Of a stretch of DNA of 64,000 nucleotides, positions 12,357-46,226 are shown piece by piece (the stretch's first letter is position 1; each line of letters opens with the position of its first letter). The notes beneath the pieces were generated by a model. The model searched no databases and was not told where the DNA came from. It saw only the letters and a program-made list of their open reading frames with translations. Source of the DNA: Ecdyonurus torrentis (Eukaryota; Arthropoda; Insecta; Ephemeroptera; Heptageniidae); assembly GCA_949318235.1 (NCBI GenBank), contig OX439127.1:6589534-6653533 (forward strand). Reading direction: 5' to 3'. A program made the translations under genes and the position numbers.

Positions 12357-12360
<4 letters not shown>

Positions 12361-13625: not shown

Positions 13626-13681
<56 letters not shown>

Positions 13682-14274: not shown

Positions 14275-14278
<4 letters not shown>

Positions 14279-14336
<58 letters not shown>
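14279..14336. repeat. (GA)n microsatellite (copy A)
   Basis: 29 units. The copy-B homologue near 54030-54050 has only about ten. Confidence 0.95.
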
Positions 14337-14339
<3 letters not shown>

Positions 14340-15510: not shown

Positions 15511-15914
<404 letters not shown>

Positions 15915-16948: not shown

Positions 16949-17792
16949 CTTTGATGGGTATAGATTAAGACAAGGCTGACTGGCTGAGTGTACCTTCTAC
17001 ATGTGTATGTGCGCCTGATCAATGTGAAGCAGCAATCAATCAAGCTTTTTGTTAAAAAAAAAAACTAGTATGTTTTGATTGAGGCTAATAAAATACCGAG
17101 CTGGTATGGTCTTACATGCATTCTATGACGACGTAAAGCATTCGGGAGGTGCATAATGGATGTGATTGCACCGTCAAGCTTGCTCATAGTTTCCACGATT
17201 TCTCTAGGCAAATGCCAGGCTGTGTAATTAGGCCGTGGCTGGCCTACATTAGCAGTTTCTATTGTACCTGTTGATAAAACATTGTCTTGACGGGACTATA
17301 GAGAAGGACTAGCACGATAACACAAAATGGCAAGAAAAAAAGTTTTAAACTATTATGTCGTATAGCATATTTATTTTTGAATTTTTCATTTTAGCATCAT
17401 AAAGAATTTTGGCATAAATTAAGGAAGTTATTCTGTTTGTTCACAAAGACAAAAGTGTAATTACAAATTATATTTGTCACATTTTATATAATTTAATGTT
17501 CACTCGATTATAAAAATAAATATAGTATAGATTTCGCATAAGAATAGTATTGCAAAATTTGCAACATACGTTATTAATACAGTTTGCGTCCTCTAGTGTT
17601 AAAATATGACAGCAAAAGCATGTGTATAAAGCAAATTTAATAAGTAATAAAACGGAACATAGTTTCTTTTTTTTTCTCACTCTTTCTTTCTTTTCTATCT
17701 ATGCTGAGCGTGGAGCCTGCGTGGAGCTCCACTCAACAATAAAGACAACCTCTTGTTGAGTTATGTCCTTCCAATATATCTCGCAGTAATAT

Positions 17793-18125
17793 TCATTCAT
17801 TCATTCATTTAGTAATTCATTCATTCATTTTAAAGATTGACGCCGTGACTCAATAACATGGACCGAATAGGAAAATGATTCATTTTGCCAGTGTAAGAAT
17901 ACTAACGTAAGCAATATTTTTAAGAGCTTTAAATTAATTAAAAGCTTTAATTAGTATATGTCAAGAATGTGAAAAAAATACTAATAATCTAATAAAACAA
18001 AATTAACCAATGTCTCAAAGAAAATAGTCTAAGCTAAATGTCCTAAGCTGAGTAATGGTATTCATTACTCCAGTATGGTGTAAAAACACATTAAATATGA
18101 CGTCATTTGCATACACCATGTACAG
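17793..18125. mobile_element. TAGGGTGTATGC-family MITE, degraded (copy A)
   Basis: Shares CTCAATAACATGG, CATTTTGCCA and GACGTCATTTGCATACACC with the family. Its 5' end has turned into short ATTC repeats. The copy-B counterpart is 59834-60123. Confidence 0.65.
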
Positions 18126-19298
18126 TATGATATGTCTGTATGTACATAATGTACGCGTTTATCAATTGTTTTCTAGGTGAAGTGACATGATAATGTTACA
18201 ATAATTGTGCCACAAATTGAATAAAAGGCTAAAGAAACAAACCTTACCTTAATTTATAGATTCTTTTATAAAAGAAATAAAAAAAATTAAATATATATAT
18301 ATAACAAATAATAATAATAAAAATTTGATAAGTTATTTAAATTATTATATTTTTTTATGCATTTCTATGTTATACATTACATGTTTCTGTATAGGATGCA
18401 GTGTAATTATTACCTGGGATGAAAGATAAATGTAATATATTATATATTTTTATTGGTATTATTTTTCAAAATACAAAGAAAGTGATAAAAACACTTTCTA
18501 ATAAATGTTGTTACTATTAATTAATAATTATGTCATTATGATAAATATTATTATAAGACAATACTTTTAAGTTAAAACATGGCAAGGTCAGTTAATATTA
18601 AATTCAAAATGGCTTAAAATATGGAAAATATAGTCAAAGTAATCATTAATATCTTTAAAAAAATGGAATCAATAAAAGATAAAGCAATATCAATATGTGC
18701 AATACATAAAAATTGTAGTTGTATTTGTTTCTTTTTTGATCTCATGTGACTTAAATAGACCAATAGATTACATTTGTATATTATTTTGATTTTTTTTAGT
18801 AATTTTTTGTGATCACTTGTGTGTTATTGACAAGTACAATAATCAATTATCATCATATTCAATATTGAGTGGTCCATTTTTTTAACGTAACATGTATTTA
18901 TTTTTACTATTTATCTAAAGCTGTAAGTAATCAATATTAAATCCAATATCACATATTCGAATTATATACAAGCTTTTTTTCAATGTTCTTATGGAAACGC
19001 TCTTATTATCTTAAAACTAAAATTTAAAATAAAAGTCAGAATATTCTGACGTCGTATTTCAATTTTTAAAATAAAAATTTATATACTTTAGGTAAGAGAG
19101 AGAGCGAGTGACACAGAGAGAAAGAGAAAGAGACAGGAGACAGAGAGAGAGAGAGTGTGTGTGTGGGAGGGGGGAAAGAATATGACAATTAATGTCTGAT
19201 TTCAAAATTTTGCATTGCCCCTCCCCTCTTATATATTTTTTAATACATACAAATAAAAATAATCTGCATAGCTTCTCTATCGCTTCAAAATGTATCAT

Positions 19299-29303: not shown

Positions 29304-30182
29304 TATTTTAGCTTGTGGATTGATATAAAAATACCATACATACAGAAACGCTGTTTAGTGTTATATGTGTATAACAAAATAATATAATAAATTATTGTCA
29401 TATTATTATACTATACTGTAACTCACTTCATAATTTAATTTAATTTTTAGAATAAAAAATATAACAACAATTGTTCAGTATTAATAATAATGATAATATT
29501 GATTTATTGAACAAGGAAATTTTACAGACAATACACGGTCATGTCACAAAACATTGAAATTGCTCAAAAGGATAACTGAAAAGGCAAAGCGCATCAAGTT
29601 AGTTATCCATAAAAGTAATAAAAAATAAAATAAAAAGGTAAAAATACAACAAATTAGACATTTTACATGTTTTTGAAACAAAGCTGCTGATATATCTTTA
29701 ATGTTACAATTTATTTTATTATATAAACCAAAGCTTCTAGAAAAAAACGAATCATTATAATAGTTGACGTTGATTCTAGGTACAATAAACTCATAGTAGA
29801 GTCGCTATTTCGCAATCTGGTGGATTTAGATCTAATAGCGACCCTATTAGCTGAGAATACAGGCAAGAATAAAAATAAGAATAAAAATCGAGACTCATGT
29901 TCATTTATACATTATTTTTGTGTTAAAATTCAGTTAATTTATTTTTATTATTACTATTCCATTATCATTTAAAAGTTTCCTTATGTGTTGCATATTAAAT
30001 AAATTTCGCACAACAAGGCTTTTTTATTTTTAGAATACATTCAAGGTGCATTTTTTTTTGCTATCATATATTTTATACGCTTAAAAAATACTACTGAATG
30101 ACTATTTTTGTCTTTCAAAAGCCTTTTAAAGTTTAAAAAAATAGTTATGTTTAATCTAGCGTAGAACAAATTATTTTATTCT

Positions 30183-30185
<3 letters not shown>

Positions 30186-30267
<82 letters not shown>
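30186..30267. repeat. (CT)n microsatellite (copy B)
   Basis: Expanded homologue of 5834-5896. Confidence 0.95.
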
Positions 30268-30268
<1 letters not shown>

Positions 30269-30420
30269 ATATTTTAAAACTACATAGACCAATGAAACAT
30301 GAAACTTAATGTTTGCAATAATTTTAACATGATCTATAAAAAAAAAAAAAAAAAAAAAAACGCATTGTAAAACATAAATACAGTTTAAAAGAAATTTTGA
30401 AAAGATTGCTGGTGGTTAGG

Positions 30421-31370
30421 TTACTTCAAAAGAGTGTTGTTGATAGAGAGGAACATTGCGAAGATCCATCCAATTGCCTGGAATCAGTAACAAAAATCAG
30501 TTCATAGAACAAAAATTATTTTACAATTAAAAAGCAACAACTGCTTTTTACTATATTTTACTAATATGTACTTACATCATTATTATATAGTGTTTTATTC
30601 AATAAATCAATATTATATATTATACTAAGTTTGTGGAAGACTCATAGACACATAAATTTGAGTCTCAAAAAGAAATGAAAAAAAAAAAAAAAAAAAGAAA
30701 GAAAATTGTTGATTTTAATTGTTTTTCTAGTAATCAAGTAATTATCTTGAGTGAATAATTTTGAAATTGTATTTATGTTAAAACTTACAAACGAAAAAGT
30801 TTTATATCTCAACGAAACAACGTAAGATCTTCCAATACAAAATGGAATTGGACTCATGCATCTCAACATCATTGTTTGTAGCATTCCAGAAAAAACTTTC
30901 CAATTTTTCGGTACATCAACGGATTTAGAAAAACAGATTTTTCCCAGTTTTTGTTCCTGAAAAAGAGAAAGATAGAGGGAGATAATTATAATATCTGTAA
31001 TAATTATGCTAGTTTAATGCAGCAACATTTATGTAAAACATCCCAATTTATGTTTTGTTGTTCTTGTACAGTGATTAAGTGATTACGATTATTATAATAG
31101 TTAACATGTTCAGTATAATTACTTATGTTATTACAAAATAGCAACATGTAATCTACAATCTATAGCAATTATTCAATGCAGAATAAATTTAATATATAAC
31201 TTTTTCTGTGTTTACATAGTACGATTGTAATAATGTATTGTACCATTTAAATCAAGTACTTTTTTTTTCTCATAAGAATAACATTACACGTTTTTAACTT
31301 AGTGCAAGTATTTGAATGGAAAAATGTAAATTTCCTATGCCTCTGCTTTTTAACTCTAAATATGCGTTGT

Positions 31371-31403
<33 letters not shown>

Positions 31404-32170
31404 GCAAAAATAAAAATGGGTTAAAAAATAAACAAACTCATCAATGATACATGATACTAAAAAAAGCACTAGCAAACGACCTTGACGTCAAAGTCAATAC
31501 TTCCGAAGTATTATTTTTTGGATTCTGAGCTTTTTATTGTATGTATATTGATACAAAGAGGGGTCTTTGTAGTCATAATTTAGAAGTTAGGTCTAAAGTT
31601 TACGTAGCTTTATAGAGTCATAAGTGGGATATTCGTTTAGCAATAAAACAATCATGTTCGCTTTAGTCGGATTATTATAAGTTTTATTAAAGTAAGTTAT
31701 ACATACCAGAGTATAGTGACGAATGAGGGTGTAAGATAGTGGTCTGACAACCTGTGTATATTGCGTCTGACTTAGGAAACAATCTGCGACCGTATGAGAG
31801 CTACTTCCTATGCTATTGACACATATATACACTTTTTACTTATATGCGGAAATGACTCTTTGTATAATTATTATACAAAGTATGACGTCTATTACATTAC
31901 TAATGTATCCTGTAATTATCCTGACCACACATCTTACTCCCTTATCGTAACATAACCCCCCTTCTTAAATTTAGTTCGTCCCCGAACTATTATTTATTTT
32001 CAGATAAGGATTATATTACAATTTACATTTATTATTTTTATTTTATTTAGATTACATTGTTAGTCACATATTTTAAAGGATATATTGTTATTTTATTATA
32101 TTTTTATATATATATTATATTAAAGGATATATTGTTATTTTATTATATTTTTTTTAAAACATAAATGGTT

Positions 32171-32231
<61 letters not shown>

Positions 32232-32937
32232 TGTATAGATAGTTATACTTGATTAAAAATTATTTATTATTGATTAACATAGTTATTAAAATATATCATA
32301 ATTTGATTAATTTATATTTTGAATTATCATTTTCTCACTGTATAGAATTGTCCAGTATTCTTTGCATGTGTCGTCAATTTATATATAATCATTCAATGTA
32401 CAATTTAAATGTTAAAAAAGATGAATAAAAAAAATGTAAATTTATTTCATATTAAATGCCATTAAAATTTTCCCAAATTTGTGATAATGTTCAACACTGG
32501 ATTTTCCTGAGCTGGTTTTCATTTGTAGAATATATGAATCACACCAAATTCTGAGAAGTATGTCAAACTGAGGTTCTCTTAATAGTTGGATCTCCTTTTG
32601 TAACACTTGTCAGATGTATATGTGACTGCTTTGCTGCAGGTATTCCATATTGATTCATTACACACCATTTTCTGTAAAAAAATTCAATGTTAATTTTACA
32701 TACAATATGAATATTTTTTAACATTTTCCTGAAATAGCAATTTTATTATTGTATTGTATACATATAAATAAATACCTGTACATATATGATTTTCTTATTT
32801 TATATACATTTATATATATATGTTTTTAAACTTTTTTGCAACACATATATATCTATGTATTTTATGTTTTTTAATCATATATATATATATATTTATGTTA
32901 CTTTTTCTAGAACATGTTTTTTCTCTTTCTTTTTTCA

Positions 32938-32981
<44 letters not shown>

Positions 32982-35236
32982 CATTAAGTGTTTATATATT
33001 TTATTTCACTTATACTTATCTACATATAAAGTTTATGAGCTTCACATGAAGTATAAATACAAGTGTTTTTTCATAAAAATATATAAATATATATATTTTA
33101 TATTTTAATCTTTAAATACTAAATGAGTGTATTCATTCCTTTCTTCTGCAGATTTCATTACTAAATAACCATCTTTTCCTGTTACTAATTGTTCTTGAGT
33201 TGTGGTAGGTCGATGTGTAAATGTCACCGTCTTTGATACTTGTTGTGGTTGTTGACTTGATGTTCCTGGCATACTGATTTTGGTTTCCTGTGTTCTTGCC
33301 CTCCTTGGTTTAGGTGTAGCACTAGTATTACCTTGCGGCATTGGTATAGGTAATGGACGTTGCACATTCGGTTGAACTGTCATTGGAATCACTACATTTG
33401 GCGTTGGATTTTGATTAAATATTGCTGTTTCAAAACGATTCTCACGTGGACGTGTAATGTTCATCCTCCTTATAAATATATATATAACAATTGCAAGTGT
33501 TGAGATTATATTTATAATTATCAAAATATATAAATATATTAAATTTGGATTATCTTTATATAAATAAATTTTATCATTATAAAGTTCTTGATAATGAAAT
33601 GTTGGATTATATATTGATGATTGATCACTTACTTTTAAACTATTAATTTTACACCATGCTGATGGCAAAATGTGTTGTATTTTAATTGTATGGGTTTTAT
33701 TTAGGAAACAGGGAAATGTTGGTGAAATTGGTGTTATATTTTCAATTAGTATACTGCAATAACATGGTAATTGTATTACAAAACTTCCAATTTCTGAGTG
33801 TTGTAATACATGTGAAATTATTTCTTGACATTGAATTTTTATATTATTTCCTACATTTGTTAAAATAAATGTATCAAAATTAATTCGTGTCACTGAGGGT
33901 GAACGAGTTTCTTCACATTGCAGTGGACAAATTTCATTTATATTTTTTATATCAATTCCTCTTAAAATATATGTTAAACAGTAAACATATTGATTATATA
34001 AATGCACCATTGGTGTTACATAACAAAGGGTATTTTTTAATGGATCACAATTCATTTGCATCAATTTCTTTTCATTAGTTTGACTTAATATAATAGCAAA
34101 ATTGTCAATAGGCATATGTATTTTACATGTTAATGTATTCCATTGAAATGGAATAGAAGTTATTTGTTGCTTTATTATGCCTTTATTTAATGATATTAAT
34201 GGTAAATTAATGCCAATTAAAATTGTGTTTTCCGAAATAAGGCAGTCCATAATGGGTAGACCATAATATGCCAAAAGATTTGGTAATTCGATTGCCAATG
34301 TATAATCAAATTTTTTAATTTTTTCATTCAATTCTTTCATACCATTATATAATTTATAATGGGTAATTACAGTCATGTCTAATAATCTTGAATTGCATGA
34401 AGAAATTAAATTTTTATAAGAAGATATTGAATTTAATAGAATTGTTATATACGATGCAATAATATTGTCTGAACATAATAAAGTGATGTTTTCTTTCATG
34501 GAAATATTTGTTTCTATTGGTGGAATTTTGACCGTATATTCCTCTATTTGCATGAAAGTTTTTTCCAATTCAGCCAATATTTCTTGCGATGTAATTATTT
34601 GATGTACGTGTTTTTTATCAGCTAGTTGAAATCGCCAAGCTGTTATTTCGCCATCATCAAACAACGGTGTCGTACGTGCACTTCTTCGTAAATGGTTGGG
34701 TATATTTAATATATTATTATTGAAACCATTTATGTAATAAAATAATAATTGATATGCACGACACTGTTGTTCACAAGCTTTGCAAATATCATTAGCATAG
34801 GTATTCCAATGATTAAATTCTTCATAGATGTTATTATTATATTGAAAAATGATTGGTAATGAAGCTTCATAAGTTGTTAAATTTGGTTGAGCTTGGAAGT
34901 ATAAACCGGATGATATAGATACTCTATTGTCATTGCCACAAGCGTTATATATTATTAAGTAATGTAGAAGAAAATGTAGATTGAAGAGTTTCATGTTAGT
35001 TATTGTTATTATTATTTTTATTTTTTATTATATATATATTATATATATATATATATATTAGAGTTGTTATTAATTTTTTATTTTTATTTTTTATTTTTTT
35101 TTTTTATATATATACAAATATATATATTTATATATAAATATGTATATTTGTATTTTGATGTTTTTTGTTGTTAAATTATTTAAGTTATCTTATTATTATT
35201 AATTATTATTACTATTATTTTTAATTATTATTAGTA

Positions 35237-35290
<54 letters not shown>

Positions 35291-37575
35291 TGATTATTTG
35301 TGTTATTTATATAATATTAGTTGTTTATTTAATATTTTATATACGTGATGTTATTATAATTTTTTGTGGTTGTTGTAGATAATTGTCCGTTTCTGGTTTC
35401 TCATTAGTAATTGAGGTTTCCGGTTGCTCCGGAAGTTTCCCAGTCTCCTTTTCCACTTTATTTACTTTTTTCTGGTTCTGTAAATAAATATTACATACGA
35501 TTCTGATAATTTTATAAATCAGAACCGACATAATTATAAACATAATTGTATGAAATATAAAAGATATATAATTAAAAGTAGCTTCTATATAGGTTATTGG
35601 TGATGCGTTTGCCTGATTGATAAATAATGCAGGCATTAACAAATTTGGGTTTCTAAATATGATTATACCCAAAATAACCGTTAAAGTAACAGACCATAAA
35701 AAACTTATCGAATATGTAACTGTGCTTAACGTTTTATGAACTACACTTGGTGTTAACGATTGAATAAGTTGTGGTGTAGATGGTATTGTTAAATTAATAT
35801 GAGGCGTTGTTAAAACCCAATCTGTATTTATTATTTTTGACAGATTATGAAAAGTTATAGTATCTTTATCATTAAAATATGTAAGACGTAAAGAATTTAT
35901 ATCTTCTTTTGTCCAAAAAGCAGGAATAATATGATGCATTTCTGTTTTTTGACCCTCAGTTTTTAAACAGGGATACTGTTTTGGAATATGTAAATTATCT
36001 ACAGATAATTCACAATTACAAGGTAGATTTATTTGAAACGCCCCTATGCGCGCTGGAGGTGCAACAAATTTATAGAGTTTATCAGTACATTGAATATTTA
36101 TTATACCTTTTATATTTGTTAGTACAAATTTATTATAATCAATTTCAGTTACTTGTAAAAATGTTGTCTTTTGACATTTCATAACACAATTTGAATTAAT
36201 ATCCTGTATAGTAGCACCTTGCATAATTAATTTAGGACAAATGTAACCTTGTTGAGTATCACTCTGGTACCTAGGAAGAAAACAAAGTTTATTATTTGCA
36301 GTATAACAATTGGCCAGATTGCGTCCTGTAATAGATAAAATAACATCATTATTTACAGCTAATATAGTTGTTTCATGTTCCAATTTACATGTATCATTAC
36401 CATGCCAAGCAAATGGAATTGTAATCATGTCATAAAATTTCCAATTTGTATTTAATTTTTTAATTGGGACTTTATATTTAATTGTTATTTCTTTATTAGT
36501 CATTATGCAATCTGCTAATGGTAAAGCATAATATTTTGATAATTTATTTATGGGTATAGAAAGTTCATGATTATCTTCATTTAATTTTTTGTTTAATGTT
36601 AATAAATCAATTTTTAATATATCTGAGTTAACAATAATTGATGGTAAATGATTTGCACGACATGATTCAATAATTTGGTGTTTTTCATTTATTAAAATAT
36701 ATTGGAAAAATTCTTGAAATAACCAGAGTGAATATTTTATATCATGAAAAATTTCTGATGTATCTTTATTTTCCCATGTACTTACGTTTTTTATACCTGA
36801 AGCTAGAATTTTTACCTGATCTTGTATCATTTTTAAATTATTGTATGTATCGGTGTTACTCACATTCATACTTTGTGTTATTTCATATATTTTTGAATAT
36901 TGATTATAAAAATTAGTATTCAGTGTACTTATTTGTTGTTGATAAACTTCTTTGTTTACCTTTAGTGATTTAATTTCTCTCATTGTTGCTACGCCACAAC
37001 AATAACGTAGAAAATCCGAGATAAAATTTAATGCACGTTTTTCCCTTGTAAATGACATCATATCTTCCTTTATGCTATTTTGATAACGTTCTAAATAACG
37101 TGATAATTGAGTACCCATTTTTTGCAGCGTTAAATCTATATTACATCGTAGATTTTTTTCATTTCTTAAACTGCATTTTGAACTTCGTAGATCAAAACTG
37201 CGATCAAGCTCAAATTCCATGAATGAAGTTGAATAAATTAATGGAATTGATGCTTGATATGCGATTAATTCGGGTAGTGGTTTAAAAAACGCTCCCGATA
37301 CAATCATTGCTGGCATTACGTTGTTCTCGCTGATAACATCGTTGATGTTGAGTGATAGCACTTGTAGACATATGAAAATTATATTAATTTTCATTTTTTT
37401 TTTCTATAACAAAAAATATATACAATTAATTCATATATTTAAATTATTTTATTATTATTAATATATTGTTAATATATATTTATTTTATACATATATTTAT
37501 ATTTTACAAACATATAATTTGTGTTGATATTATATATATTTCTTTCTATTTATTTATTTATTTATTTATTTTTAT

Positions 37576-37616
<41 letters not shown>

Positions 37617-37620
37617 CACA

Positions 37621-37681
<61 letters not shown>

Positions 37682-40600
37682 GACTATATACAATTATAAT
37701 ATATTTATTTACTATTCATAATGTAACTTCATTTTTGCTGTACCTACAATATCATATGTTATATTTTTACCTTTACCCTTTTGTATTTCATATGTTTTAG
37801 CCCCAACTTTTTTTGTTATAACATATGGACCTTTGTAAAATGACATAAGTTTTGGAGATTTCCCTTTAACTCTTTGCGGAGTAAGAACTCTAACTTTGTC
37901 TCCTACTTGATACTCTATATGTTTCCTATTTGCATCATTTCTTTCCTTAGATTTAAGTTGTGATGCTGTTAGATTTTTTAATGCAATATTTTGTGCAATT
38001 TTAATTTTTTCTTGTATATCTGTGCATGTTTCAGTTTGTGGATGAAAAGTTAGTGCTTGATCATGTGGAAAATATGGTATTTTATTATATACAAGTTCAT
38101 ATGGACTTATTTGCATTGATGCTTGTTTTGAAGTATTGAATGCAAAAGTTATATGTGTGAGTGCCATATCCCACATATTTTGATCGGTATCGGTATACAT
38201 TGCTAACGAGTTACATAGAGTTTTATTTACTCTTTCGGTAAGACCATTAATTTCAGGTGTGTACGCTAATGTTACTTTTTTACTGCCACCTAACATCGTT
38301 ATCAGCTCCGTTATTACATGTGAAGTAAATACACGTCCTCTGTCCGATAGTAATATTTTTGGTGCTCCATAACGACATATAATGCGCGATAATAAGAAAT
38401 GAGCTACTGTTGGTATAGTTTGGTCTGGAATCGCTTTAGTTTCAATCCAACGTGTAGTGAAGTCTGTTGCTACAATTATATTTCTATTACCTGATGTTGT
38501 TACTTTGAATGGACCGAGTATATCAACGCTCCATTGTGTAAATTTTTCTTTAGGTGGTATTATTGGCATAAGTAACCCTGCGGGTTTCCCTGGAACTGCT
38601 TTACGACCCTGACAATGTACACATTTTTTTATAAATTGAGTAACTGTTTTATATAATTTTGGCCAATAATATTTTAATGTAATTTTATCAATAGTTTTTG
38701 CTTGACCTAAGTGACCTGAAATAGGGTCACTGTGATTAGCTATCATAACATCCTCTTGTAGTGAGGCAGGAATTGCCAATAAGTGTATAAGTCCTCTAGG
38801 ATTAGAATTTTTTTTATATAATACCTGATCTTTAATTATATAATTTTTTAATTTACGTTGAATAATTGCAGGTAAGTCAGGTGGATTATTTTCCATGTCA
38901 CTAATAATCTTTGCTAATTCAGGGTCGGACCTTTGTCCCAAAGCTATATCCTCAATAGAAAGTGACATAACGTCGATTATTGAATTTTCATTATACTGTC
39001 TGTGATATTCATAATTTTGTTCAGATTGTAATTGTTTGTCACATACCTTGTGTATTATTTCACTATAAGATGGTCCTATGTCACATGTAGGTATGTCTAA
39101 CATATCCTCATTATCGTCAGCTGGCAACACTGGACTTCTGGATAAACAATCAGGTATTTTATGAAGTTTACCTGATCTATACCTGAAGCTAATTTGCTTG
39201 TCTTGTAATTGCAGTGCCAATCTTGCCAGTTGACCTGTGTTAGGTGATATGTTATGCAACCAACATAAATTGCAGTGATCTGTCACTATTGTAACGCGTA
39301 ATCCCCAAATATATGGCTGGAAATATTTTATACTCCAAACAACACACACAAGCTCTAGCATTATAGCTGAATAATTTTTTTCTGATTTAGAAAGTGAGCG
39401 GGCTGCATATTCTACAGGATGCATGTGATTATCATCCTCAAGAATCATTAAAACAGCACCTAGACCAGCTGAAGTCGCTGCGTCACAATGTATTTCTATA
39501 TATTTCCCTAATTTGAAGTGAGCTAAGATAGGTGGGGAAATTAACAATTTTTTTAATATTTGAAATGAATTTTCACAATCTTCATTCCATGCTATAGGTT
39601 TTTTCTTATCAGATTTTGCGACTAATTCGTGCATAGGTTTGCATAATGCAGAGTAGCTCTCTATCCACCTGCGAAAATAGTTGCACATACCCAGGAAGCT
39701 TTGCAGAGATCTTAATCTGCTAGGGCGAGGAAATAAATCAATTGTCGCTGTTTTTGTTGGATTTGGAAGTATACCTTCAATTGTGATTATGTAACCTAAC
39801 ACCTTTACCTTTGACATTGCAAAAAAGCATTTAGACAATTTTAATTTTAAATTACTTTTACGTAGGCGTGAGAATATAGCCTCTAGGTTGTCTAAATGTT
39901 GATCGAATGTTTCACTTTGTGTAATTAAGTCATCAATATAACATACTACCTGTTTCCACTTAATTTCTTCCATTACAATATCCATAGTCTCTTGTAACAC
40001 CTGGCTACCTGTAATTAACCCTTGGGCGTGGCAGTTGAACTCATAGTGATTTAAGTCAGGTGTACAAAAAGCTGTCAGGTGTTTACAGTTTTCAGTAAGT
40101 GGTATTTGGAAGAAACTTTGATATAGGTCGAGTGTAGAAAAATATCTACCTCCTGATAGGTATGCTAATATGGTGTCTACGGTCGTAAAAGGTCTTATTT
40201 TATTTAAAATAAACGTATTTAGGATACGAAAATCTACCGTAAAACGAAAGGTGCCATCAGGCTTTCGTACGAGCACTATAGGTGCAGCATATTGTGATTT
40301 TGAATACCTTATAATTTTTGCTTTTAATAATTCTGCTACTTGTTGACGTATAATTTCTAATTGTAATAGTGATACTTTATATGGTTGTCTATATATAGGT
40401 TTAGTTCCTGGTTTGACTTTAATTTCGAAGGTGTGAACATTAGTGATTGAACTTTCAGCTAAACAAGTTGCAAAAATATCTGAGTATTTGTTTATTAAAT
40501 TATGCAATTTTATTTTTTCTTTTCTTGTAAGCATAGATCCAATCTGTTCCTCAGATATTTCTACAATTGTAGATTCTTTTGATAAGCAACAAATATCAGG

Positions 40601-43600
40601 GTAAATTTTCTCAATAATTGAACCAACTACAGTACGTGAGAAAATTATTTGTGGATCATCAGAAGTATTTTGCAATCTTACCATAAGTCGTTTACCTTTT
40701 TTTACAATAGTTGCAGTGACATTTTTTCGTATTAATAAGTTTTGATTTTGAGTGAATGTAATATTTTGTAACAATTTATTTTTTAATTGCTCGCTGCTAA
40801 CCAACAGGGCTTGATGCGGCGTGAGGCGAACATCAACATCCAGCGTTATCATGCATTTCCCGGGTGTGGCTTGCGTCACCTCTCCGGTAGAGCATTTCCG
40901 CTTTATGCGTGATGCAGTCTCAGGCTGGACCACATCCTGTTGTTGCAGTATTAATGTACTATTTTCGTAATTAATATTTGCTTTATAATCTTTTAAAAAT
41001 TGAATACCTAAAATAATGCAATTATTTTCGTCGAGATTTTCTCTTATATACATATCTTGTTTAAATTTATTTTCCCCAATTTGAAATATAATATTGACAA
41101 TACCCAAAGTTTCAACAATGTGACCACTTGCTGATCGTAGAGGTTGATTACATGGAGTAATTTTTTCATTTTTTATTAATTTTTTATCAATTAAATTTAC
41201 AGATGAGCCTGAATCAATCAGAGCATTTGTTTTTATTTTATTTACAGTAATAGGTAATAAAATTCTATCGTTATTATCAAATTGGAAGATTTTTTGTGAA
41301 TTACTGACAGCATGAACTTCCGGTTTTACTGTCTCCTTGCGTTTCCCGCTTGGCGGCAATGCATAGCTATATGTCCTACTCTGCCACAAATTTCGCAAAT
41401 TGGAGCATTATTTGAATTCCTACCTCCTCTATTATTTGAGTTAGGTGTTCGATTTTGACCTGTGTTTTGTGTATATGTGCGTGGGATAGCACCTGTAGAT
41501 GTTTGGTTTTGTGTATTTTGCCCTTGTTGTATATGTGTGTTGTTATCTGGGTTATTCTGTTGATTCTGTCTCCCATTATTACTGTTACCACCCCTTATGT
41601 TATTACTTTCATATTTTGTGTTGTTTTCTCGTGTATTATTTTGATAACTACCTCTATAGTTATTTCCCCTATAGTTATTTCCCCTGTAGTTATTCCCTCG
41701 ATAATTTTGATATTCTCTGGGATAACCATTGTTTTGTTGTGTTGGTAGAGGTTGTGTTTGTGTTTGGTTATTAAGACGTTGTTGCATATTTACTATGGTG
41801 AGAGATATATTATTTATAGCCTCCATAACGCGAGTTAACTCTGAGTTATCTTGCGTTTGAATTAAAGTAGCTGCATTCCGTTCAGCTAAAAGTTCCCTAT
41901 CTTGCGCTTTAGATAGAGTGTCCCATAAGTTATCAACAGTATGGATTTGATCTAAAGGAATGGCTTTCAAGAGTTGAGGTTGTAATCCCTTAATTATATG
42001 TTGTATTTGCTCATCAGGAGTCATATTTGGGTTAGTTCGATAACACAAATTTATAACATCATAAAAATATGTTTGTAATGGCTCACCAATTTTATGTACA
42101 CGTTCATACAATGATCGGTTAATCAGCATAGATTCACCTGGTTTGTGAAATTTCTGAATGAAATCAGTTTTAAAATGTTGCCAGGTGCTATGCGGATTTT
42201 GCCGATGATAACTTTCATACCATCCATATGCATCTTTACCTAGATATGCTGCAATACTAGCACGCTTTTTTACATTATCCCATCCATTTGAACTAGAAAC
42301 TGCTTCGTAACGGCTAAGATATCCGTTAGGTTCGTCCTTAATGTCGTATATTGGAATTTTTGTAGAAGGCATGACTTGAACCTCCACCACAGGAGGTGGT
42401 GGATTGTTTTGAGCCATTTTAATTAATTTTCGTTGTCTATTTAAATCGTTCGCATTACACCACACCCCATGCACAAAATTATATTCGAATGATCTGTTAG
42501 CTAGCCTACGACTACGTCTAGTTGGACTCTTTTTTTGTCGAATATTTCCTACCATCACCAAACATGGCTATTTTATTTAATAACGAATACCACTTATTTT
42601 ACCGAAATTGTAAGAAAATGCGCCTCCACCAATGATACAAAGAGGGGTCTTTGTAGTCATAATTTAGAAGTTAGGTCTAAAGTTTACGTAGCTTTATAGA
42701 GTCATAAGTGGGATATTCGTTTAGCAATAAAACAATCATGTTCGCTTTAGTCGGATTATTATAAGTTTTATTAAAGTAAGTTATACATACCAGAGTATAG
42801 TGACGAATGAGGGTGTAAGATAGTGGTCTGACAACCTGTGTATATTGCGTCTGACTTAGGAAACAATCTGCGACCGTATGAGAGCTACTTCCTATGCTAT
42901 TGACACATATATACACTTTTTACTTATATGCGGAAATGACTCTTTGTATAATTATTATACAAAGTATGACGTCTATTACATTACTAATGTATCCTGTAAT
43001 TATCCTGACCACACATCTTACTCCCTTATCGTAACAATATAATAGACTAAGTATCAAAATTTTTGCTTTCCCGAATTTCAACTAATTTAGTTTTTTTTTT
43101 TTCATTCAATTGATTTCATATTTAAGAAAATGTTAGCTTCAAAGCTGAGTAAACTATACACAGTAAAAGTTTCAGTATATTAAGATAATTTTTATAAACT
43201 GGAGATTATGCGATTATAAACTTCATTTCTCTATAAGAAAGCATTTTAAATCAAGAAAAAATCGCAAAGTCGTCTGTTTCCACTTTTTTTTTTTTAAATT
43301 TTAACTAAACTTATTTATTTATTTATTATTATATTTTTTTTCAAAGTATAACTTGTAATTTTAAATATAAGAACCAAACCAACACTTACAGTATCATAAG
43401 CTTGCTCTGCGCACATGCAAAAACAAACAAATTGCCATACAGAATAACTTAAGAAAGTAAAATATATGAATGTCAAAATGAAGGAATGAAAGTCTCCATC
43501 CACAACTGCTGCTTTCATCTGTAAAATAAAAAGTATTTATTATTAAATGAAATAAAAAATCTATACATATTCTACATCTTATTTTCTCCAGCATAGTTAA

Positions 43601-45064
43601 ATAAATATAAGAAATATTATAAGTTGCTTAATTACAGCAGAAATTACACGTAATATTTTGTTTTCATGATCGTATATTAAATATGACACCTGGCTTCGTC
43701 AATGTTAGATAATAAGAAGAACTGTTCATAAACTAACATTTAATGGCCCATGGCCCTAAGGCGCAAACTCATGATCATCTTGCGAGATATGCAACTTGTC
43801 GCATATCTTTTACGTCATATATAGTTACAGTTTCAGTTTCATTTAGGTTTTATTTGAAAAAGCATGAATACACGACTTTACCATAGCATAAGTATAATAT
43901 ACACTATAGGGTGTATGCATTCATGTTAAAGTCAACGCCATGTTGGATAACTCAATAACATGGGTGGCATAGGACAAAAAATCATTTTGCCAATTTAAAA
44001 ACACTATGCAATATTTTTGAGAACATTGATGCTGTAAATATGTTGAATTAGCATCTCAAGTATGTGAGAAAAATTAGAAATAACACAAAATTAACCGATT
44101 TCCCAAAGAAAATATGCTTAAATTAAGTTTGTCCTATGCTGAGCAATGTTATGCACTACTCCAGCATGGCCTCCAAGCGCAATAAATATGACGTCATCCG
44201 CATACACCCTATATTATATGTAGTGGGTTGTATATCTTACAGGATGCTTGCAAGCTTGTTTTGTTGGGCTACCATGGGGTTACGGAAGGTCTTTGGGTCA
44301 TTATAATATGTGAGTCAATGAACAGTTCATCTCATTATCTAACATTGAAAAAGCCATGTTATGTAAACCTTAGCTAAACTTCCTCTTTAACATAAAAGTT
44401 GTATAATATACTTACAGTATTTACGATCTCAAATACGACACATGACATTAAGAACATTCGTACTATGGACAGCAACATTGGTGTTCCAAAATTTTTGTTG
44501 AAATCCATTGACATTCTGAAATTTAAAATTTATAAATTGAGTATAACATAATATTAAAAATAATAACAGTAAAGTACATAATCATTTATTTATTGCATTT
44601 AGATTATACTGTATGTAAATTAAAATTAGTGCATATATAGGTACTGTATAGAGAAATTAGTAGAGAGTATAGAGTACAAAATATTGCTGCATGTGAAATA
44701 TGTATTTATATATTCGAATGCTTACGGATAACCCGCACATGCTACATGCTATATCTTTAAATATTTAGAGAAAATAATCCCATGCATTGAGGCACAATCA
44801 AAGTTTTTTATAGGGCGACTCTCTAGAAACATTTATGTGTTGATAGCATACATTTGTTTTCTAAGTTTATATAAAGGTAAAAATCAAAATAATACAATGT
44901 ACATACAGCAAGTTTTATTAAAAATGAGACACAGAGGATTTTACGTATTTTTACATCACCGTAAGTTATAGTTTGCTTTAATATGACTGAAATCACTTTT
45001 AATCGCCCTCAAAACAGCTGTTTTCCTATTATTTAATATTGTATTTTCTTTTTGATCAAAATAT

Positions 45065-45108
<44 letters not shown>

Positions 45109-45796
45109 ATACTTACTGTCCTACATGCTGGTGAACTGTAATACAATAAATAAATTGTTCTTCCAGTTTTTTTTTATCATCTTTTGTTGTTGGCTCAGAT
45201 GGAATGTCAATATTATTAACTAATTCACAAATTTGACTCAAATATATTTTAATTATGATAAGTAAATATAAAGGTATTAATTCAATAAATATTAAAGATA
45301 TTACGATTGCTGGTGCTATTATTATCAATATTATTTTCTTTACATATGAATTTAAAATTTCATCAACACTAAAAGTGTGAGATTCTAATGCTCTATATAT
45401 TGTTGCAAGGAACATTATTACTAATGTAAAAGTTACAAAAATTGTACATAATTTTTTAAATGTCTTATTACTGTTATTTATTAATTGTTCTTTAAAGTGA
45501 TAATGATTTACCAGTATAGCAAATTGACTGTATATATCTTTCACTTTATATTTCAATATACAAAATTTAGTGTATGTTAAAGTAAGTACTGCAAATCGCC
45601 AAATTATTAGTAAAGTTTCTTTGCCATTTTTAAAATCTTTAATAAGGATAAATAATAAAAGTATAATAGCAATTAGAATTGTATATGAACACCAATACAT
45701 ATATATTTTACTCAAAATTCTTTTTAGATTTGATTTATGACTCCATGCTATAAGACCAGCAATTTTTAAAAGTAATAATCCGAACTGAAAATGCAT
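30421..45796 (-). CDS. Odorant receptor (insect 7tm_6), copy B, interrupted in intron 3 by a retrovirus-like element
   Basis: Paralog of the gene at 6034-10507 with the same five-exon structure: 45796-45117, 44515-44416, 43518-43390, 30956-30789 and 30477-30421. All splice sites and the frame are preserved, giving 377 aa with about 15 substitutions against copy A. Examples are Y to D and K to T in exon 1, F to V and F to Y in exon 3, R to S in exon 4, and F to I in exon 5. Intron 3 is swollen to about 12.4 kb by the 11.5-kb element at 31549-43036, which lies in the same transcriptional orientation. Each LTR carries a sense AATAAA, so premature polyadenylation after exon 3 is possible; that would remove the last transmembrane region. 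Coding capacity is intact, but normal expression is uncertain. Confidence 0.83.
31549..31952 (-). repeat. 3' LTR of the retrovirus-like element
   Basis: 404 bp, apparently identical to 42633-43036. The sense AATAAA at 31688-31683 is the likely polyadenylation signal of the element. Because the element is in the same orientation as the host receptor gene, this signal could also act on the receptor transcript. Confidence 0.93.
31953..31969 (-). promoter_or_regulatory. Polypurine tract
   Basis: The minus strand reads AAGAAGGGGGGTTA immediately upstream of the 3' LTR. This is the expected position and composition for the plus-strand priming site of reverse transcription. Confidence 0.75.
31970..33104 (-). 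other. 3' non-coding region of the retrovirus-like element
   Basis: About 1.1 kb between env 2 and the polypurine tract. It is very AT-rich and includes two long T runs on the plus strand (32173-32228 and 32939-32978), which are poly(A) in the sense RNA. Apart from the possible exon at 32563-32671 I see no coding potential. Confidence 0.7.
32563..32671 (-). other. Possible accessory exon downstream of env 2
   Basis: A strong acceptor-like tract, TTTTTTTACAG, ends at 32672. The sequence after it is less AT-rich than its surroundings and is open in two frames. One runs 35 codons to TGA at 32563. The other starts at an ATG 4 nt after the acceptor and gives a 29-residue peptide with four cysteines, ending TAA. 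It may be a small spliced accessory protein, an alternative C terminus, or chance. No match is recognised. Confidence 0.3.
33105..34994 (-). CDS. Envelope-like glycoprotein 2, diverged paralog of Env 1
   Basis: 629 aa with an ATG start and signal peptide, in the same order and orientation as the first envelope gene and 342 nt downstream of it. Similarity to Env 1 is clear in the C-terminal ectodomain: YGLPIMDC against YALPLADC, IPFQW against IPFAW, FILTN against FVLTN, and IQLPCYC against INLPCNC, with similar spacing and shared cysteines. The N-terminal half differs. It has a possible basic processing site (RRSAR, 103-107), but the residues after it are acidic and polar, not a fusion peptide. 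One transmembrane segment (about 486-508) is followed by a long proline- and threonine-rich cytoplasmic tail of about 120 aa. It may be an attachment, partner or antagonist version of Env 1, but the function is unknown. I see no good splice acceptor just before its ATG. Confidence 0.82.
   Translation of the reverse strand: MKLFNLHFLLHYLIIYNACGNDNRVSISSGLYFQAQPNLTTYEASLPIIFQYNNNIYEEFNHWNTYANDICKACEQQCRAYQLLFYYINGFNNNILNIPNHLRRSARTTPLFDDGEITAWRFQLADKKHVHQIITSQEILAELEKTFMQIEEYTVKIPPIETNISMKENITLLCSDNIIASYITILLNSISSYKNLISSCNSRLLDMTVITHYKLYNGMKELNEKIKKFDYTLAIELPNLLAYYGLPIMDCLISENTILIGINLPLISLNKGIIKQQITSIPFQWNTLTCKIHMPIDNFAIILSQTNEKKLMQMNCDPLKNTLCYVTPMVHLYNQYVYCLTYILRGIDIKNINEICPLQCEETRSPSVTRINFDTFILTNVGNNIKIQCQEIISHVLQHSEIGSFVIQLPCYCSILIENITPISPTFPCFLNKTHTIKIQHILPSAWCKINSLKVSDQSSIYNPTFHYQELYNDKIYLYKDNPNLIYLYILIIINIISTLAIVIYIFIRRMNITRPRENRFETAIFNQNPTPNVVIPMTVQPNVQRPLPIPMPQGNTSATPKPRRARTQETKISMPGTSSQQPQQVSKTVTFTHRPTTTQEQLVTGKDGYLVMKSAEERNEYTHLVFKD
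35337..37394 (-). CDS. env: Envelope-like glycoprotein 1, F-type fusion protein
   Basis: 685 aa, starting at an ATG with a hydrophobic signal peptide. A furin-type REKR at 117-120 is followed by ALNFISDFLRYCCGVAT (121-137). This is the arrangement of cleavage site and fusion peptide found in baculovirus F and insect errantivirus envelopes. A heptad-like helical stretch follows (about 145-245). The Cys-rich C-terminal ectodomain (about 290-495) contains IPFAW and INLPCNC. There are two hydrophobic segments near the C terminus, about 558-580 and 608-635, then a charged tail. The expected role is membrane fusion at the surface of particles or infected cells. A splice acceptor ends at 37404, 9 nt before the ATG, consistent with expression from a spliced RNA. 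The frame is unbroken. The F-like assignment is from motifs only. Confidence 0.85.
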   Translation of the reverse strand: MKINIIFICLQVLSLNINDVISENNVMPAMIVSGAFFKPLPELIAYQASIPLIYSTSFMEFELDRSFDLRSSKCSLRNEKNLRCNIDLTLQKMGTQLSRYLERYQNSIKEDMMSFTREKRALNFISDFLRYCCGVATMREIKSLKVNKEVYQQQISTLNTNFYNQYSKIYEITQSMNVSNTDTYNNLKMIQDQVKILASGIKNVSTWENKDTSEIFHDIKYSLWLFQEFFQYILINEKHQIIESCRANHLPSIIVNSDILKIDLLTLNKKLNEDNHELSIPINKLSKYYALPLADCIMTNKEITIKYKVPIKKLNTNWKFYDMITIPFAWHGNDTCKLEHETTILAVNNDVILSITGRNLANCYTANNKLCFLPRYQSDTQQGYICPKLIMQGATIQDINSNCVMKCQKTTFLQVTEIDYNKFVLTNIKGIINIQCTDKLYKFVAPPARIGAFQINLPCNCELSVDNLHIPKQYPCLKTEGQKTEMHHIIPAFWTKEDINSLRLTYFNDKDTITFHNLSKIINTDWVLTTPHINLTIPSTPQLIQSLTPSVVHKTLSTVTYSISFLWSVTLTVILGIIIFRNPNLLMPALFINQANASPITYIEATFNYISFIFHTIMFIIMSVLIYKIIRIVCNIYLQNQKKVNKVEKETGKLPEQPETSITNEKPETDNYLQQPQKIIITSRI
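37395..37420 (-). promoter_or_regulatory. Splice acceptor upstream of env 1
   Basis: The minus strand reads TTTTTTGTTATAG with the AG ending at 37404, followed by a run of A and then the env 1 ATG at 37394. Errantivirus envelopes are normally expressed from a spliced subgenomic RNA, and this is a good candidate acceptor. The matching donor is not resolved; GT sites lie near 42604 and 42552. Confidence 0.55.
37712..41398 (-). CDS. pol: Pol polyprotein: protease, reverse transcriptase, RNase H, integrase
   Basis: 1228-codon open frame, entered from gag by -1 frameshifting; its first codon is TTG, not ATG. Domains in order, numbered on the open frame: aspartic protease with DSG at 62-64 and an ILG-type motif near 129-131; reverse transcriptase with LDLYQSFFQIPL (Asp 424) and the catalytic YIDD at 487-490; RNase H with Asp 639, Glu 682 and TDH at 707; integrase with an HHCC zinc finger (His 889, His 896, Cys 926, Cys 929) and a DD35E triad (Asp 959, Asp 1019, Glu 1055); and a C-terminal GPY/F module (YKGPYVI). 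Every catalytic residue is present, so the enzyme set looks functional. The domain order pro-RT-RH-IN is diagnostic of Ty3/gypsy rather than Copia. It ends 317 nt before the first envelope-like gene. Confidence 0.96.
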   Translation of the reverse strand: MRNLWQSRTYSYALPPSGKRKETVKPEVHAVSNSQKIFQFDNNDRILLPITVNKIKTNALIDSGSSVNLIDKKLIKNEKITPCNQPLRSASGHIVETLGIVNIIFQIGENKFKQDMYIRENLDENNCIILGIQFLKDYKANINYENSTLILQQQDVVQPETASRIKRKCSTGEVTQATPGKCMITLDVDVRLTPHQALLVSSEQLKNKLLQNITFTQNQNLLIRKNVTATIVKKGKRLMVRLQNTSDDPQIIFSRTVVGSIIEKIYPDICCLSKESTIVEISEEQIGSMLTRKEKIKLHNLINKYSDIFATCLAESSITNVHTFEIKVKPGTKPIYRQPYKVSLLQLEIIRQQVAELLKAKIIRYSKSQYAAPIVLVRKPDGTFRFTVDFRILNTFILNKIRPFTTVDTILAYLSGGRYFSTLDLYQSFFQIPLTENCKHLTAFCTPDLNHYEFNCHAQGLITGSQVLQETMDIVMEEIKWKQVVCYIDDLITQSETFDQHLDNLEAIFSRLRKSNLKLKLSKCFFAMSKVKVLGYIITIEGILPNPTKTATIDLFPRPSRLRSLQSFLGMCNYFRRWIESYSALCKPMHELVAKSDKKKPIAWNEDCENSFQILKKLLISPPILAHFKLGKYIEIHCDAATSAGLGAVLMILEDDNHMHPVEYAARSLSKSEKNYSAIMLELVCVVWSIKYFQPYIWGLRVTIVTDHCNLCWLHNISPNTGQLARLALQLQDKQISFRYRSGKLHKIPDCLSRSPVLPADDNEDMLDIPTCDIGPSYSEIIHKVCDKQLQSEQNYEYHRQYNENSIIDVMSLSIEDIALGQRSDPELAKIISDMENNPPDLPAIIQRKLKNYIIKDQVLYKKNSNPRGLIHLLAIPASLQEDVMIANHSDPISGHLGQAKTIDKITLKYYWPKLYKTVTQFIKKCVHCQGRKAVPGKPAGLLMPIIPPKEKFTQWSVDILGPFKVTTSGNRNIIVATDFTTRWIETKAIPDQTIPTVAHFLLSRIICRYGAPKILLSDRGRVFTSHVITELITMLGGSKKVTLAYTPEINGLTERVNKTLCNSLAMYTDTDQNMWDMALTHITFAFNTSKQASMQISPYELVYNKIPYFPHDQALTFHPQTETCTDIQEKIKIAQNIALKNLTASQLKSKERNDANRKHIEYQVGDKVRVLTPQRVKGKSPKLMSFYKGPYVITKKVGAKTYEIQKGKGKNITYDIVGTAKMKLHYE
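41326..42555 (-). CDS. gag: Gag polyprotein of the retrovirus-like element
   Basis: Structural protein that packages element RNA. The open frame extends to 42561, but its first two codons there are TTG and GTG; the first ATG is at 42555, giving 409 aa. The N terminus is basic (KKSPTRRSRR). A retrotransposon-Gag capsid-like region covers roughly residues 70-240 (YGWYESYH, F.TDFIQKFH, motifs typical of this family). Then follows a low-complexity N/Q-rich linker with tandem NYRGN units and, at the C terminus, one CCHC zinc knuckle (CEICGRVGHIAMHC, about residues 387-400). The knuckle is typical of Ty3/gypsy in general; Drosophila errantivirus Gags usually lack it. A 15-codon upstream ORF (42565-42518) overlaps the start in another frame. 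The 3' end overlaps pol by 73 nt and contains the frameshift site. Confidence 0.93.
   Translation of the reverse strand: MVGNIRQKKSPTRRSRRLANRSFEYNFVHGVWCNANDLNRQRKLIKMAQNNPPPPVVEVQVMPSTKIPIYDIKDEPNGYLSRYEAVSSSNGWDNVKKRASIAAYLGKDAYGWYESYHRQNPHSTWQHFKTDFIQKFHKPGESMLINRSLYERVHKIGEPLQTYFYDVINLCYRTNPNMTPDEQIQHIIKGLQPQLLKAIPLDQIHTVDNLWDTLSKAQDRELLAERNAATLIQTQDNSELTRVMEAINNISLTIVNMQQRLNNQTQTQPLPTQQNNGYPREYQNYRGNNYRGNNYRGNNYRGSYQNNTRENNTKYESNNIRGGNSNNGRQNQQNNPDNNTHIQQGQNTQNQTSTGAIPRTYTQNTGQNRTPNSNNRGGRNSNNAPICEICGRVGHIAMHCRQAGNARRQ
41341..41347 (-). promoter_or_regulatory. -1 ribosomal frameshift site (GGGAAAC)
   Basis: On the minus strand the gag codons GCG GGA AAC form the canonical slippery heptamer G GGA AAC in the correct phase. 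It lies 13 nt before the gag stop codon. A -1 slip here enters the pol frame at KRKETVKPE. Pol has no ATG of its own upstream of the protease, so it must be made this way. A short downstream pairing, GACAG with CTGTC, is possible, but no strong stem is obvious. Confidence 0.85.
42618..42632 (-). promoter_or_regulatory. Putative primer-binding site
   Basis: Directly next to the 5' LTR the minus strand reads TTGGTGGAGGCGC. A TGG-initial sequence here fits pairing with a tRNA 3' CCA end. The match resembles an alanine-type acceptor end, but I cannot settle the tRNA identity without the host tRNA set. Confidence 0.5.
42633..43036 (-). repeat. 5' LTR of the retrovirus-like element
   Basis: 404 bp, starting TGTTACGATA at 43036 and ending TTTGTATCA at 42633 on the minus strand. 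It contains a TATA-like TATAATA inside a small palindrome near 42950-42965 and a sense AATAAA at 42772-42767. It appears identical to the 3' LTR. It should supply the promoter for element transcription. Confidence 0.93.
43907..44211. mobile_element. TAGGGTGTATGC MITE (copy B)
   Basis: Duplicate of 8507-8811, in intron 2 of receptor B, with almost no change. Confidence 0.8.
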
Positions 45797-46226
45797 TTCT
45801 TTTCCCTTTTTAATTTAACTTCTGTAACAGTAAAAATTATTCTTTCTCTTTTATATATGCAGTCACTCTTTTTGAATAGTGTTAATATCAATTTATGTTT
45901 ATATGAAAATTGACACAGTTTTTTATTTATTTATTATTATTATTATTTGTAATAATTTTTGTAATAATAATGTTTGATTATTTTTTTACACTTAACACCA
46001 TTACTTATAAAACTAAAATATATTATGCACTAAAATACTGCAAAAGAAAATTATGTTTAAGAAAATATTATCTTCATTTCACTACACTTATAGGGGGTTT
46101 GTTTGATAGTTTTTTTGTGTAACACAAGAGAACAGGAGAAACAAAAGTATATATCTTAGTGTTTATGACAAATGGAAGAACAGCATTATATTTGCATCTA
46201 TTAAAGTCCTTGTTAAATTACTTTTA

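What the first reader, a model, noticed from the sequence alone, without database searches (positions are those of the whole stretch)
33105..37394. One retrovirus-like element with two tandem, diverged envelope-like genes
Both frames are intact and encode a signal peptide, a Cys-rich ectodomain and a C-terminal membrane anchor. They share ordered motifs (LP..DC, IPF.W, F.LTN, I.LPC.C), so they are paralogs. Only the first has a furin-type site followed by a fusion-peptide-like segment. The second has lost that and gained a long cytoplasmic tail. Known insect errantiviruses carry a single F-like env. A division of labour (fusion versus attachment), a heteromeric glycoprotein, or a self-interference protein are possible. 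That both remain open in an element with identical LTRs argues the second gene is maintained.
Basis: partly seen in the sequence, partly recalled or inferred. Interest (0 to 1): 0.9.

Follow-up and report, generated by a model that had tools for sequence, protein, structure and literature searches.

The report
Retrovirus-like element with two envelopes
A recently inserted virus-like jumping gene in an animal genome, probably an insect's, carries two intact, distantly related envelope genes side by side, of which only the first has the layout of a membrane-fusing protein, hinting at an unusual split of roles that needs confirming in other copies.

Summary
A complete Ty3/gypsy-type provirus lies on the minus strand (31549-43036): identical 404-bp LTRs flanked by ATAT, gag, pol (in-phase GGGAAAC slippery site) and two intact frames, env1 (685 aa) and env2 (629 aa). 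They are true paralogs (30% identity over 290 aa, E = 1e-33; 12 of 12 env1 core cysteines paired). Similarity is confined to an N-terminal block (shuffle z = 9) and the Cys-rich core (z = 50); it is not significant between cleavage site and core (z = 1.9) or after the core (z = 0.3). So env2 kept the head but not env1's putative fusion segment or anchor. Corrections: env2 keeps a minimal RxxR (RSAR) at env1's site; env1 has two C-terminal hydrophobic segments. Neither Env matches a Pfam envelope family and env1 misses the published F-type motif, so "F-like" rests on layout. env1 has a splice acceptor 9 nt before its ATG; env2 has none comparable nearby. Most likely env2 is a non-fusogenic accessory glycoprotein. 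No relative of either Env was found in the collections searched, structure models failed, and the host-genome search did not complete, so whether other copies keep both genes is untested.

The parts
42633..43036 (-). 5' LTR, 404 bp, TG...CA
   Evidence: self-BLAST, 100% identical to 31549-31952; ends read from sequence
31549..31952 (-). 3' LTR, 404 bp
43037..43040 (.). target-site duplication ATAT, 5' side of element
31545..31548 (.). target-site duplication ATAT, 3' side of element
42618..42631 (-). putative primer-binding site TGGTGGAGGCGCAT, one base after the 5' LTR; tRNA not identified
   Evidence: read from sequence
41326..42555 (-). gag, 409 aa from ATG 42555, CCHC knuckle near the end
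   Evidence: Retrotrans_gag 25.6 bits against cut-off 24.1; zinc-knuckle models below cut-off; frame and ATG
41341..41347 (-). -1 frameshift slippery heptamer G GGA AAC, in phase, four codons before the gag stop
37712..41407 (-). pol frame: protease, RT, RNase H, integrase (probably entered by -1 frameshift)
   Evidence: Pfam RVT_1, RT_RNaseH, rve, Integrase_H2C2 above cut-off; protease models below cut-off
37404..37428 (-). putative splice acceptor ...TATATTTTTTGTTATAG, 9 nt before the env1 ATG
   Evidence: highest pyrimidine fraction (0.65; next 0.59) among YAG sites in the 900 nt upstream
35337..37394 (-). env1, 685 aa: N-terminal hydrophobic segment, REKR 117-120, Pro-free post-cleavage region, 12-Cys core, two C-terminal hydrophobic segments
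33105..34994 (-). env2, 629 aa: RSAR 104-107 without a hydrophobic follow-up, 12-Cys core, one C-terminal hydrophobic segment, 119-aa tail ending in two YxxPhi motifs
34995..35336 (-). env1-env2 spacer, 342 nt, A 219 / T 101, stops in all three frames, no ATG (P = 0.54 by composition)
31956..31966 (-). polypurine tract AAGAAGGGGGG before the 3' LTR
   Evidence: read from sequence

Best explanation
SHOWN: this is a young, structurally complete Ty3/gypsy-type endogenous retroelement with two intact, paralogous env genes inside one LTR pair. Env1 has, in order, a short N-terminal part, REKR, a Pro-free segment, a 12-Cys core and C-terminal hydrophobic segments. Env2 keeps the N-terminal block and the whole 12-Cys core, but has no significant similarity to Env1 exactly where Env1 has its putative fusion peptide and helical region, nor in anchor and tail. 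INFERRED: env was duplicated, or acquired a second time from a relative, long before this insertion. Env1 is a cleavage-activated class-I-type fusogen made from a spliced mRNA. Env2 is a membrane-anchored, non-fusogenic accessory glycoprotein that still uses the shared head to bind what Env1 binds (the cell receptor, or Env1 itself). It thereby assists attachment or limits re-infection and unwanted fusion, with its tail (two YxxPhi motifs) governing uptake from the cell surface.
For: Complete element with identical LTRs and matching ATAT; gag and pol domains; in-phase slippery site. Paralogy E = 1e-33. Region-by-region shuffles: N-terminus z = 9.0 (0 of 2000 reach it), core z = 50 (0 of 500), post-cleavage region z = 1.9 (98 of 2000), C-terminus z = 0.3 (687 of 2000). 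Twelve of 12 env1 core cysteines paired. In simulated neutral decay of env2 at 0.1 substitution per site 0 of 300 replicates stayed open, mean 12 stops; the real pair shows no nucleotide similarity at E <= 0.01, yet both are open. env1 acceptor, and a GT directly after the gag ATG that as a donor would join gag ATG and env1 in frame. Tail motif YLVM-x8-YTHL: 0.24% of 20,000 shuffles show such a pair (pattern chosen after seeing it; two or more YxxPhi in any spacing: 4.9%). The flanks are collinear with the paralogous site without the element in the same window, which argues against a misjoin of two elements.
Against: Only one copy was seen. No relative of either Env was found: none of 5558 candidates (env2) or 4556 (env1) at E <= 1e-3; none in four viral-contig scans with env queries or one scan of bacterial/archaeal contigs. 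No Pfam envelope family at E <= 10. Structure models unusable. The eight best acceptor candidates for env2 lie 483-1331 nt upstream, inside env1, and five of them score as high as or higher than env1's own acceptor, so the simple score does not single out env1's site and env2's expression is unproven. Env1's 20 residues after the cleavage site are only mildly hydrophobic (Eisenberg mean 0.12, Env2 0.00), and heptad signals are not significant (24 of 300 shuffles for Env1, 83 of 300 for Env2). Env2's retained RxxR could mean it is still cleaved.
Confidence: 0.5

Rival explanations
1. Obligate two-part entry system: Env1 is the fusion subunit and Env2 the attachment subunit, both needed on the particle, as with F plus attachment protein in paramyxoviruses (recalled analogy).
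For: Env2 keeps the head and its own anchor while the fusion segment is not recognisable; both frames intact.
Against: Env1 keeps the same 12-Cys core itself, so nothing shows it lacks a receptor-binding part; no dedicated splice acceptor near env2.
Confidence: 0.2
2. Env2 is a second, differently activated fusogen: cleavage at RSAR still occurs and the divergent downstream segment works as a fusion peptide.
For: RSAR occupies the column of REKR; the mean hydrophobicity of the 20 residues after the site differs little between the two (0.12 and 0.00).
Against: The residues after RSAR include charged residues and proline, and the region up to the core is 32 residues shorter with three prolines against none.
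Confidence: 0.08
3. Passenger: a mosaic element that picked up a second env by recombination with a relative; env2 is open only because little time has passed since then and it has no role in this element.
For: Single copy seen; no relatives found; identical LTRs mean the insertion itself is too young to show decay.
Against: env1 and env2 have nearly the same G+C at the three codon positions (0.35/0.30/0.17 and 0.35/0.32/0.17), lower than gag and pol, as expected of long co-residence, though common origin could give the same.
Confidence: 0.15
4. Assembly artefact: the low-complexity spacer between env1 and env2 joined two elements wrongly.
For: The spacer is 342 nt, 94% A+T, with a 29-nt A run, a place where assemblies can fail.
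Against: Both ends carry the same LTR and TSD, and the two flanks are neighbours, apart from another insert, in the paralogous copy at 5424-9436, so both ends belong to one insertion.
Confidence: 0.07

Closest known systems
Insect endogenous retroviruses (errantiviruses: gypsy, ZAM, Idefix) with env-F
   Same: LTRs, gag-pol, env 3' of pol behind a splice acceptor, cleavage site, conserved cysteines, membrane anchor (env-F features and splicing as in passages of PMC12992720; -1 frameshift in gypsy is recalled)
   Different: That paper's passages treat 17 full-length env-F proteins and repeated env loss, and its text holds 'two env' and 'second env' 0 times; here there are two env genes. No Pfam envelope match, the published motif is not met, and pol could not be compared with a named errantivirus.
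Ephemerovirus G and GNS (rhabdovirus tandem glycoprotein paralogs)
   Same: Consecutive paralogous glycoprotein genes in one genome, sharing conserved cysteines (PMC4334499, passages)
   Different: Negative-strand RNA viruses and another protein family; an analogy only.
Group I baculoviruses with GP64 plus a fusion-defective F homolog (recalled; the one search returned no paper)
   Same: An F-type protein without fusion activity kept beside a working fusogen
   Different: The two baculovirus proteins are unrelated to each other; here they are paralogs.
HERV-V ENVV1/ENVV2
   Same: Two related env genes near each other in one genome
   Different: They lie in separate proviruses placed in tandem by duplication (PMC2567338, passages); here both lie inside one LTR pair.

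Membership tests
Ty3/gypsy LTR retroelement (Metaviridae) | LTR pair with TG...CA ends and 4-6 bp target-site duplication | tested here: met
   (404 bp, 100%, ATAT)
Ty3/gypsy LTR retroelement (Metaviridae) | pol order protease-RT-RNase H-integrase | tested here: met
   RT, RNase H and integrase models above Pfam cut-off, protease models (best E 7e-5) below it; 228 proteins at E <= 1e-20 of 6444 candidates, 120 listed, best 40% identity
Ty3/gypsy LTR retroelement (Metaviridae) | primer-binding site and polypurine tract | tested here: inconclusive
   Polypurine tract read from sequence; TGG-initial site one base after the LTR, tRNA not identified
Insect errantivirus / env-F clade | pol groups with errantivirus pol | not testable with these tools
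   No named errantivirus among the 120 hits listed; quick tree of 54 of them plus the window places it with unnamed metagenome rows (SH-aLRT 95 and 99; window row flagged for odd composition)
Insect errantivirus / env-F clade | Env recognised as baculovirus-F type | tested here: not met
   No Pfam envelope family for either Env at E <= 10; only unrelated matches below cut-off; no positive control was run
Insect errantivirus / env-F clade | RxxR followed by GxxxxxGxxxKxxxGxxDxxD (motif as printed in PMC6085415) | tested here: not met
   Env1 has REKR; 0 of 6 motif residues match without a gap; shifted by one residue G matches and R for K, E for D are similar (own reading)
Insect errantivirus / env-F clade | env expressed from a spliced subgenomic RNA | tested here: inconclusive
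   Candidate acceptor and donors in sequence for env1; no RNA data
Class-I-type (F-like) fusion protein | short N-terminal part, furin site, fusion peptide, helices, Cys-rich domain, anchor, in this order | tested here: inconclusive
   Order of REKR, Pro-free segment, Cys-rich core and C-terminal hydrophobic segments in Env1 fits; fusion peptide only mildly hydrophobic, heptads not significant, fold models failed

The most novel reading that the evidence does not exclude
A retroelement lineage evolved a two-protein envelope system by duplicating its own fusogen: Env1 fuses, while Env2 is a head-only paralog with an uptake or signalling tail that controls binding or re-infection. I know of no such division of labour inside a single LTR element.
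Probability: 0.3. Interest if true: 0.85.

Novelty: new variant of a known kind. Interest (0 to 1): 0.6.

Why it matters
Insect endogenous retroviruses infect the germ line from somatic ovarian cells with an Env protein (PMC13172572 and PMC12992720, passages). A lineage with a fusogen and a non-fusogenic paralog in one provirus would show that env duplication and division of labour can evolve in retroelements, and it would give a natural test of how such elements control attachment, re-infection or toxic fusion.

Tried and rejected
Chance ORFs: rejected. Two proviruses side by side or nested: not supported; self-BLAST of the window shows one LTR pair, and the element's four proteins have no other tblastn match in the window at E <= 1e-3 except env1 and env2 to each other. 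Solo LTR at the paralogous site: rejected; the insert of about 450 bp there is another sequence with GTTAGC...GCTAAC ends. Nucleotide similarity between env1 and env2 (E <= 0.01), or between the two spacers (low-complexity filter on): none, so no recent duplication unit is visible. ATG-free env1-env2 spacer as a sign of design: rejected, P = 0.54 by composition. Heptad repeats: not significant (24 of 300 and 83 of 300 shuffles reach the observed value). Late-domain motifs in gag: none of the patterns searched. PDB sequence searches: six dihydroorotate dehydrogenase sequences at E about 0.04 for env1, none for env2, three at E about 1 for the two-sequence profile, all taken as chance. IMG/VR: eight scans, four with env queries and four with pol queries, gave one distant gypsy-type contig, L001, with no same-strand frame of 120 aa or more after its pol. 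Bacterial and archaeal genome contigs: no env relative; 36 contigs with pol, taken as probable eukaryotic contaminants. In these 36 and L001 (37 loci) env1 and env2 have no tblastn match at E <= 1. These scans look only for short exact peptide patterns, so distant relatives can be missed. Fold searches were not run because both models had mean pLDDT under 35.

Literature: 10 searches (two searches returned no paper). None of the titles and abstract starts listed describes one LTR element with two env genes, but lists were capped. In PMC8672886 (zebrafish ERVs) 'two env' occurs once, in a passage I was not shown. The most relevant paper (Chary and Hayashi, eLife 108449) is not held, so an earlier report there cannot be excluded. 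PMC12440569 (outline), PMC12859917 and PMC11952523 (passages) were looked at and did not bear on two env genes.
Full report
What is there. On the minus strand of the window lies a complete LTR element, 31549-43036. Its two LTRs are 404 bp and identical, with TG...CA ends, a TGG-initial site one base after the 5' LTR and a polypurine tract before the 3' LTR. Both sides carry ATAT. The window also holds a segmental duplicate of the host region: 5424-7164 and 7622-9436 match 29777-31548 and 43032-44836. The element is absent from that copy, which carries an unrelated insert of about 450 bp at the same site. Apart from that insert the flanks are neighbours in the paralogous copy, so both ends of the element belong to one insertion, most simply made after the host duplication.

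Gag and pol. The gag frame has a Retrotrans_gag match just above cut-off and zinc-knuckle matches below it. Pol has RT, RNase H and integrase models above cut-off and protease models below it. The two overlap with pol in the -1 frame, and a canonical G GGA AAC heptamer sits in phase four codons before the gag stop. Pol has 228 relatives at E <= 1e-20 among 6444 candidates, of which 120 were listed, the best at 40% identity. Among the first 24 listed, the named ones are mostly the pseudoscorpion Cordylochernes, with one mite, one cichlid fish and one bacterial metagenome bin. In a quick tree of the window and 54 of the 120 listed proteins it pairs with an unnamed metagenome protein, P0013 (SH-aLRT 95), inside an eight-row set (99). 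Branches are long and the window row was flagged for odd composition. No named errantivirus pol was among the hits, so that clade could not be tested.

The two env genes. Env1 (685 aa) and Env2 (629 aa) are both open from ATG to stop, far beyond chance (longest simulated frame 181 aa in 300 runs). BLASTP gives 30% identity over 290 aa, E = 1e-33. I split the proteins and tested each part against shuffles. The N-terminal part is related (z = 9.0, 0 of 2000 shuffles), carried by one 24-residue block. The Cys-rich core is strongly related (z = 50, 0 of 500), with 12 of 12 env1 core cysteines paired. The segment between the cleavage site and the core is not significant (z = 1.9, 98 of 2000), nor is everything after the core (z = 0.3, 687 of 2000). 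The divergence therefore falls on the putative fusion machinery and on the anchor and tail. Env1 has REKR followed by 125 residues without proline up to the first core cysteine; Env2 has RSAR in the same column, then a 93-residue stretch with three prolines. Against a clear-cut loss of function: mean hydrophobicity of the 20 residues after the site is only 0.12 in Env1 and 0.00 in Env2, and heptad signals are not significant in either. Env1 has two C-terminal hydrophobic segments. Env2 has one, followed by a 119-residue tail with 21% Pro+Gln that ends in YLVM-x8-YTHL. Such a pair of YxxPhi motifs occurs in 0.24% of shuffled tails, but the pattern was chosen after seeing it; two or more YxxPhi at any spacing occur in 4.9%. 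Double YxxPhi or ITAM-like motifs in retroviral Env tails are recalled, not searched.

Expression. Env1 has a T-rich acceptor 9 nt before its ATG, the best-scoring YAG of the 900 nt upstream by a small margin (0.65 against 0.59). A GT directly after the gag ATG would, if used as a donor, join gag ATG to env1 in frame, although an upstream out-of-frame ATG complicates this; another candidate donor lies at 42602, before any ATG between LTR and gag. Splicing of env from exons upstream of or within gag is described for Drosophila ERVs (PMC12992720, passages). For env2 the eight best acceptor candidates in 1500 nt lie 483-1331 nt upstream, inside env1; several score as well as env1's own. The second nearest of them, at 35478, would leave one 16-codon upstream ORF, and the nearest lies only a little downstream or upstream of the same region in that list (483 and 618 nt from the env2 ATG). 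How env2 is expressed is open.

Selection. No orthologs were available for dN/dS. The argument is indirect: env1 and env2 share no nucleotide similarity at E <= 0.01, while simulated decay of env2 breaks its frame at 0.1 substitution per site in 300 of 300 runs. Both genes were thus kept open in their lineages for much of the time since they diverged. This does not tell whether both served one element throughout, or were brought together later by recombination.

What it is called. Env1 has an order of parts like an F-type, class-I fusion protein, but family membership was not shown. Pfam gives no envelope family at E <= 10, only unrelated matches below cut-off; no positive control was run. The motif printed for insect ERV and baculovirus F proteins (PMC6085415, passages) is not met beyond RxxR. 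AlphaFold2 with two sequences failed for full-length Env1 (mean pLDDT 31) and for its Cys-rich core (34); Env2 was not modelled on its own. I therefore call the element Ty3/gypsy with env, errantivirus-like in layout, without filing the Env proteins as Baculo_F.

How it probably works. The pattern of conservation fits a fusogen plus a head-only paralog. The closest analogy in print of which I saw passages is the rhabdovirus G/GNS pair (PMC4334499); the fusion-defective F homolog of group I baculoviruses is recalled. I consider a non-fusogenic accessory role of Env2 most likely (0.5) and an obligate two-part entry system less so (0.2).

Limits. One copy, one locus, unnamed host. Four viral-contig scans with env queries and one genome-contig scan gave no env relative; four viral-contig scans and one genome-contig scan with pol queries brought 37 loci, none with a match to either Env at E <= 1. 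Two protein-database searches gave no Env relative at E <= 1e-3. The search of the host's own genome did not complete (22 requests). The titles and abstract starts listed in ten literature searches described no such element, but the most relevant paper was not held.

Noticed in passing
43391-45814 and up to about 30956, minus strand: The element sits, in the same orientation, in what looks like an intron of a multi-exon membrane-protein gene resembling an insect chemoreceptor (donor GTAAGT near 43391, acceptor TTTTTCAG near 30956). Pfam did not recognise the exons, so this label is a guess.
   Followed up: partly
about 7165-7621: The paralogous copy of that intron carries a different insert of about 450 bp with GTTAGC...GCTAAC ends and a CT microsatellite at the very same ATAT site: apparently two independent insertions at one target.
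   Followed up: partly
31953-33104, 34995-35336, 37395-37711: The three non-coding spacers of the 3' half hold long A runs (56, 29 and 36 nt on the sense strand) and TA repeats, which seems unusual inside a young element.
   Followed up: partly
33120-33167 (env2 codons 610-625): Env2's tail ends in YLVM-x8-YTHL, ITAM-like or a double endocytosis signal.
   Followed up: partly
1-18273 and 27921-60268: Large segmental duplication of the host region; the eight pieces longer than 450 bp (LTRs left out) are 88-98% identical.
   Followed up: no
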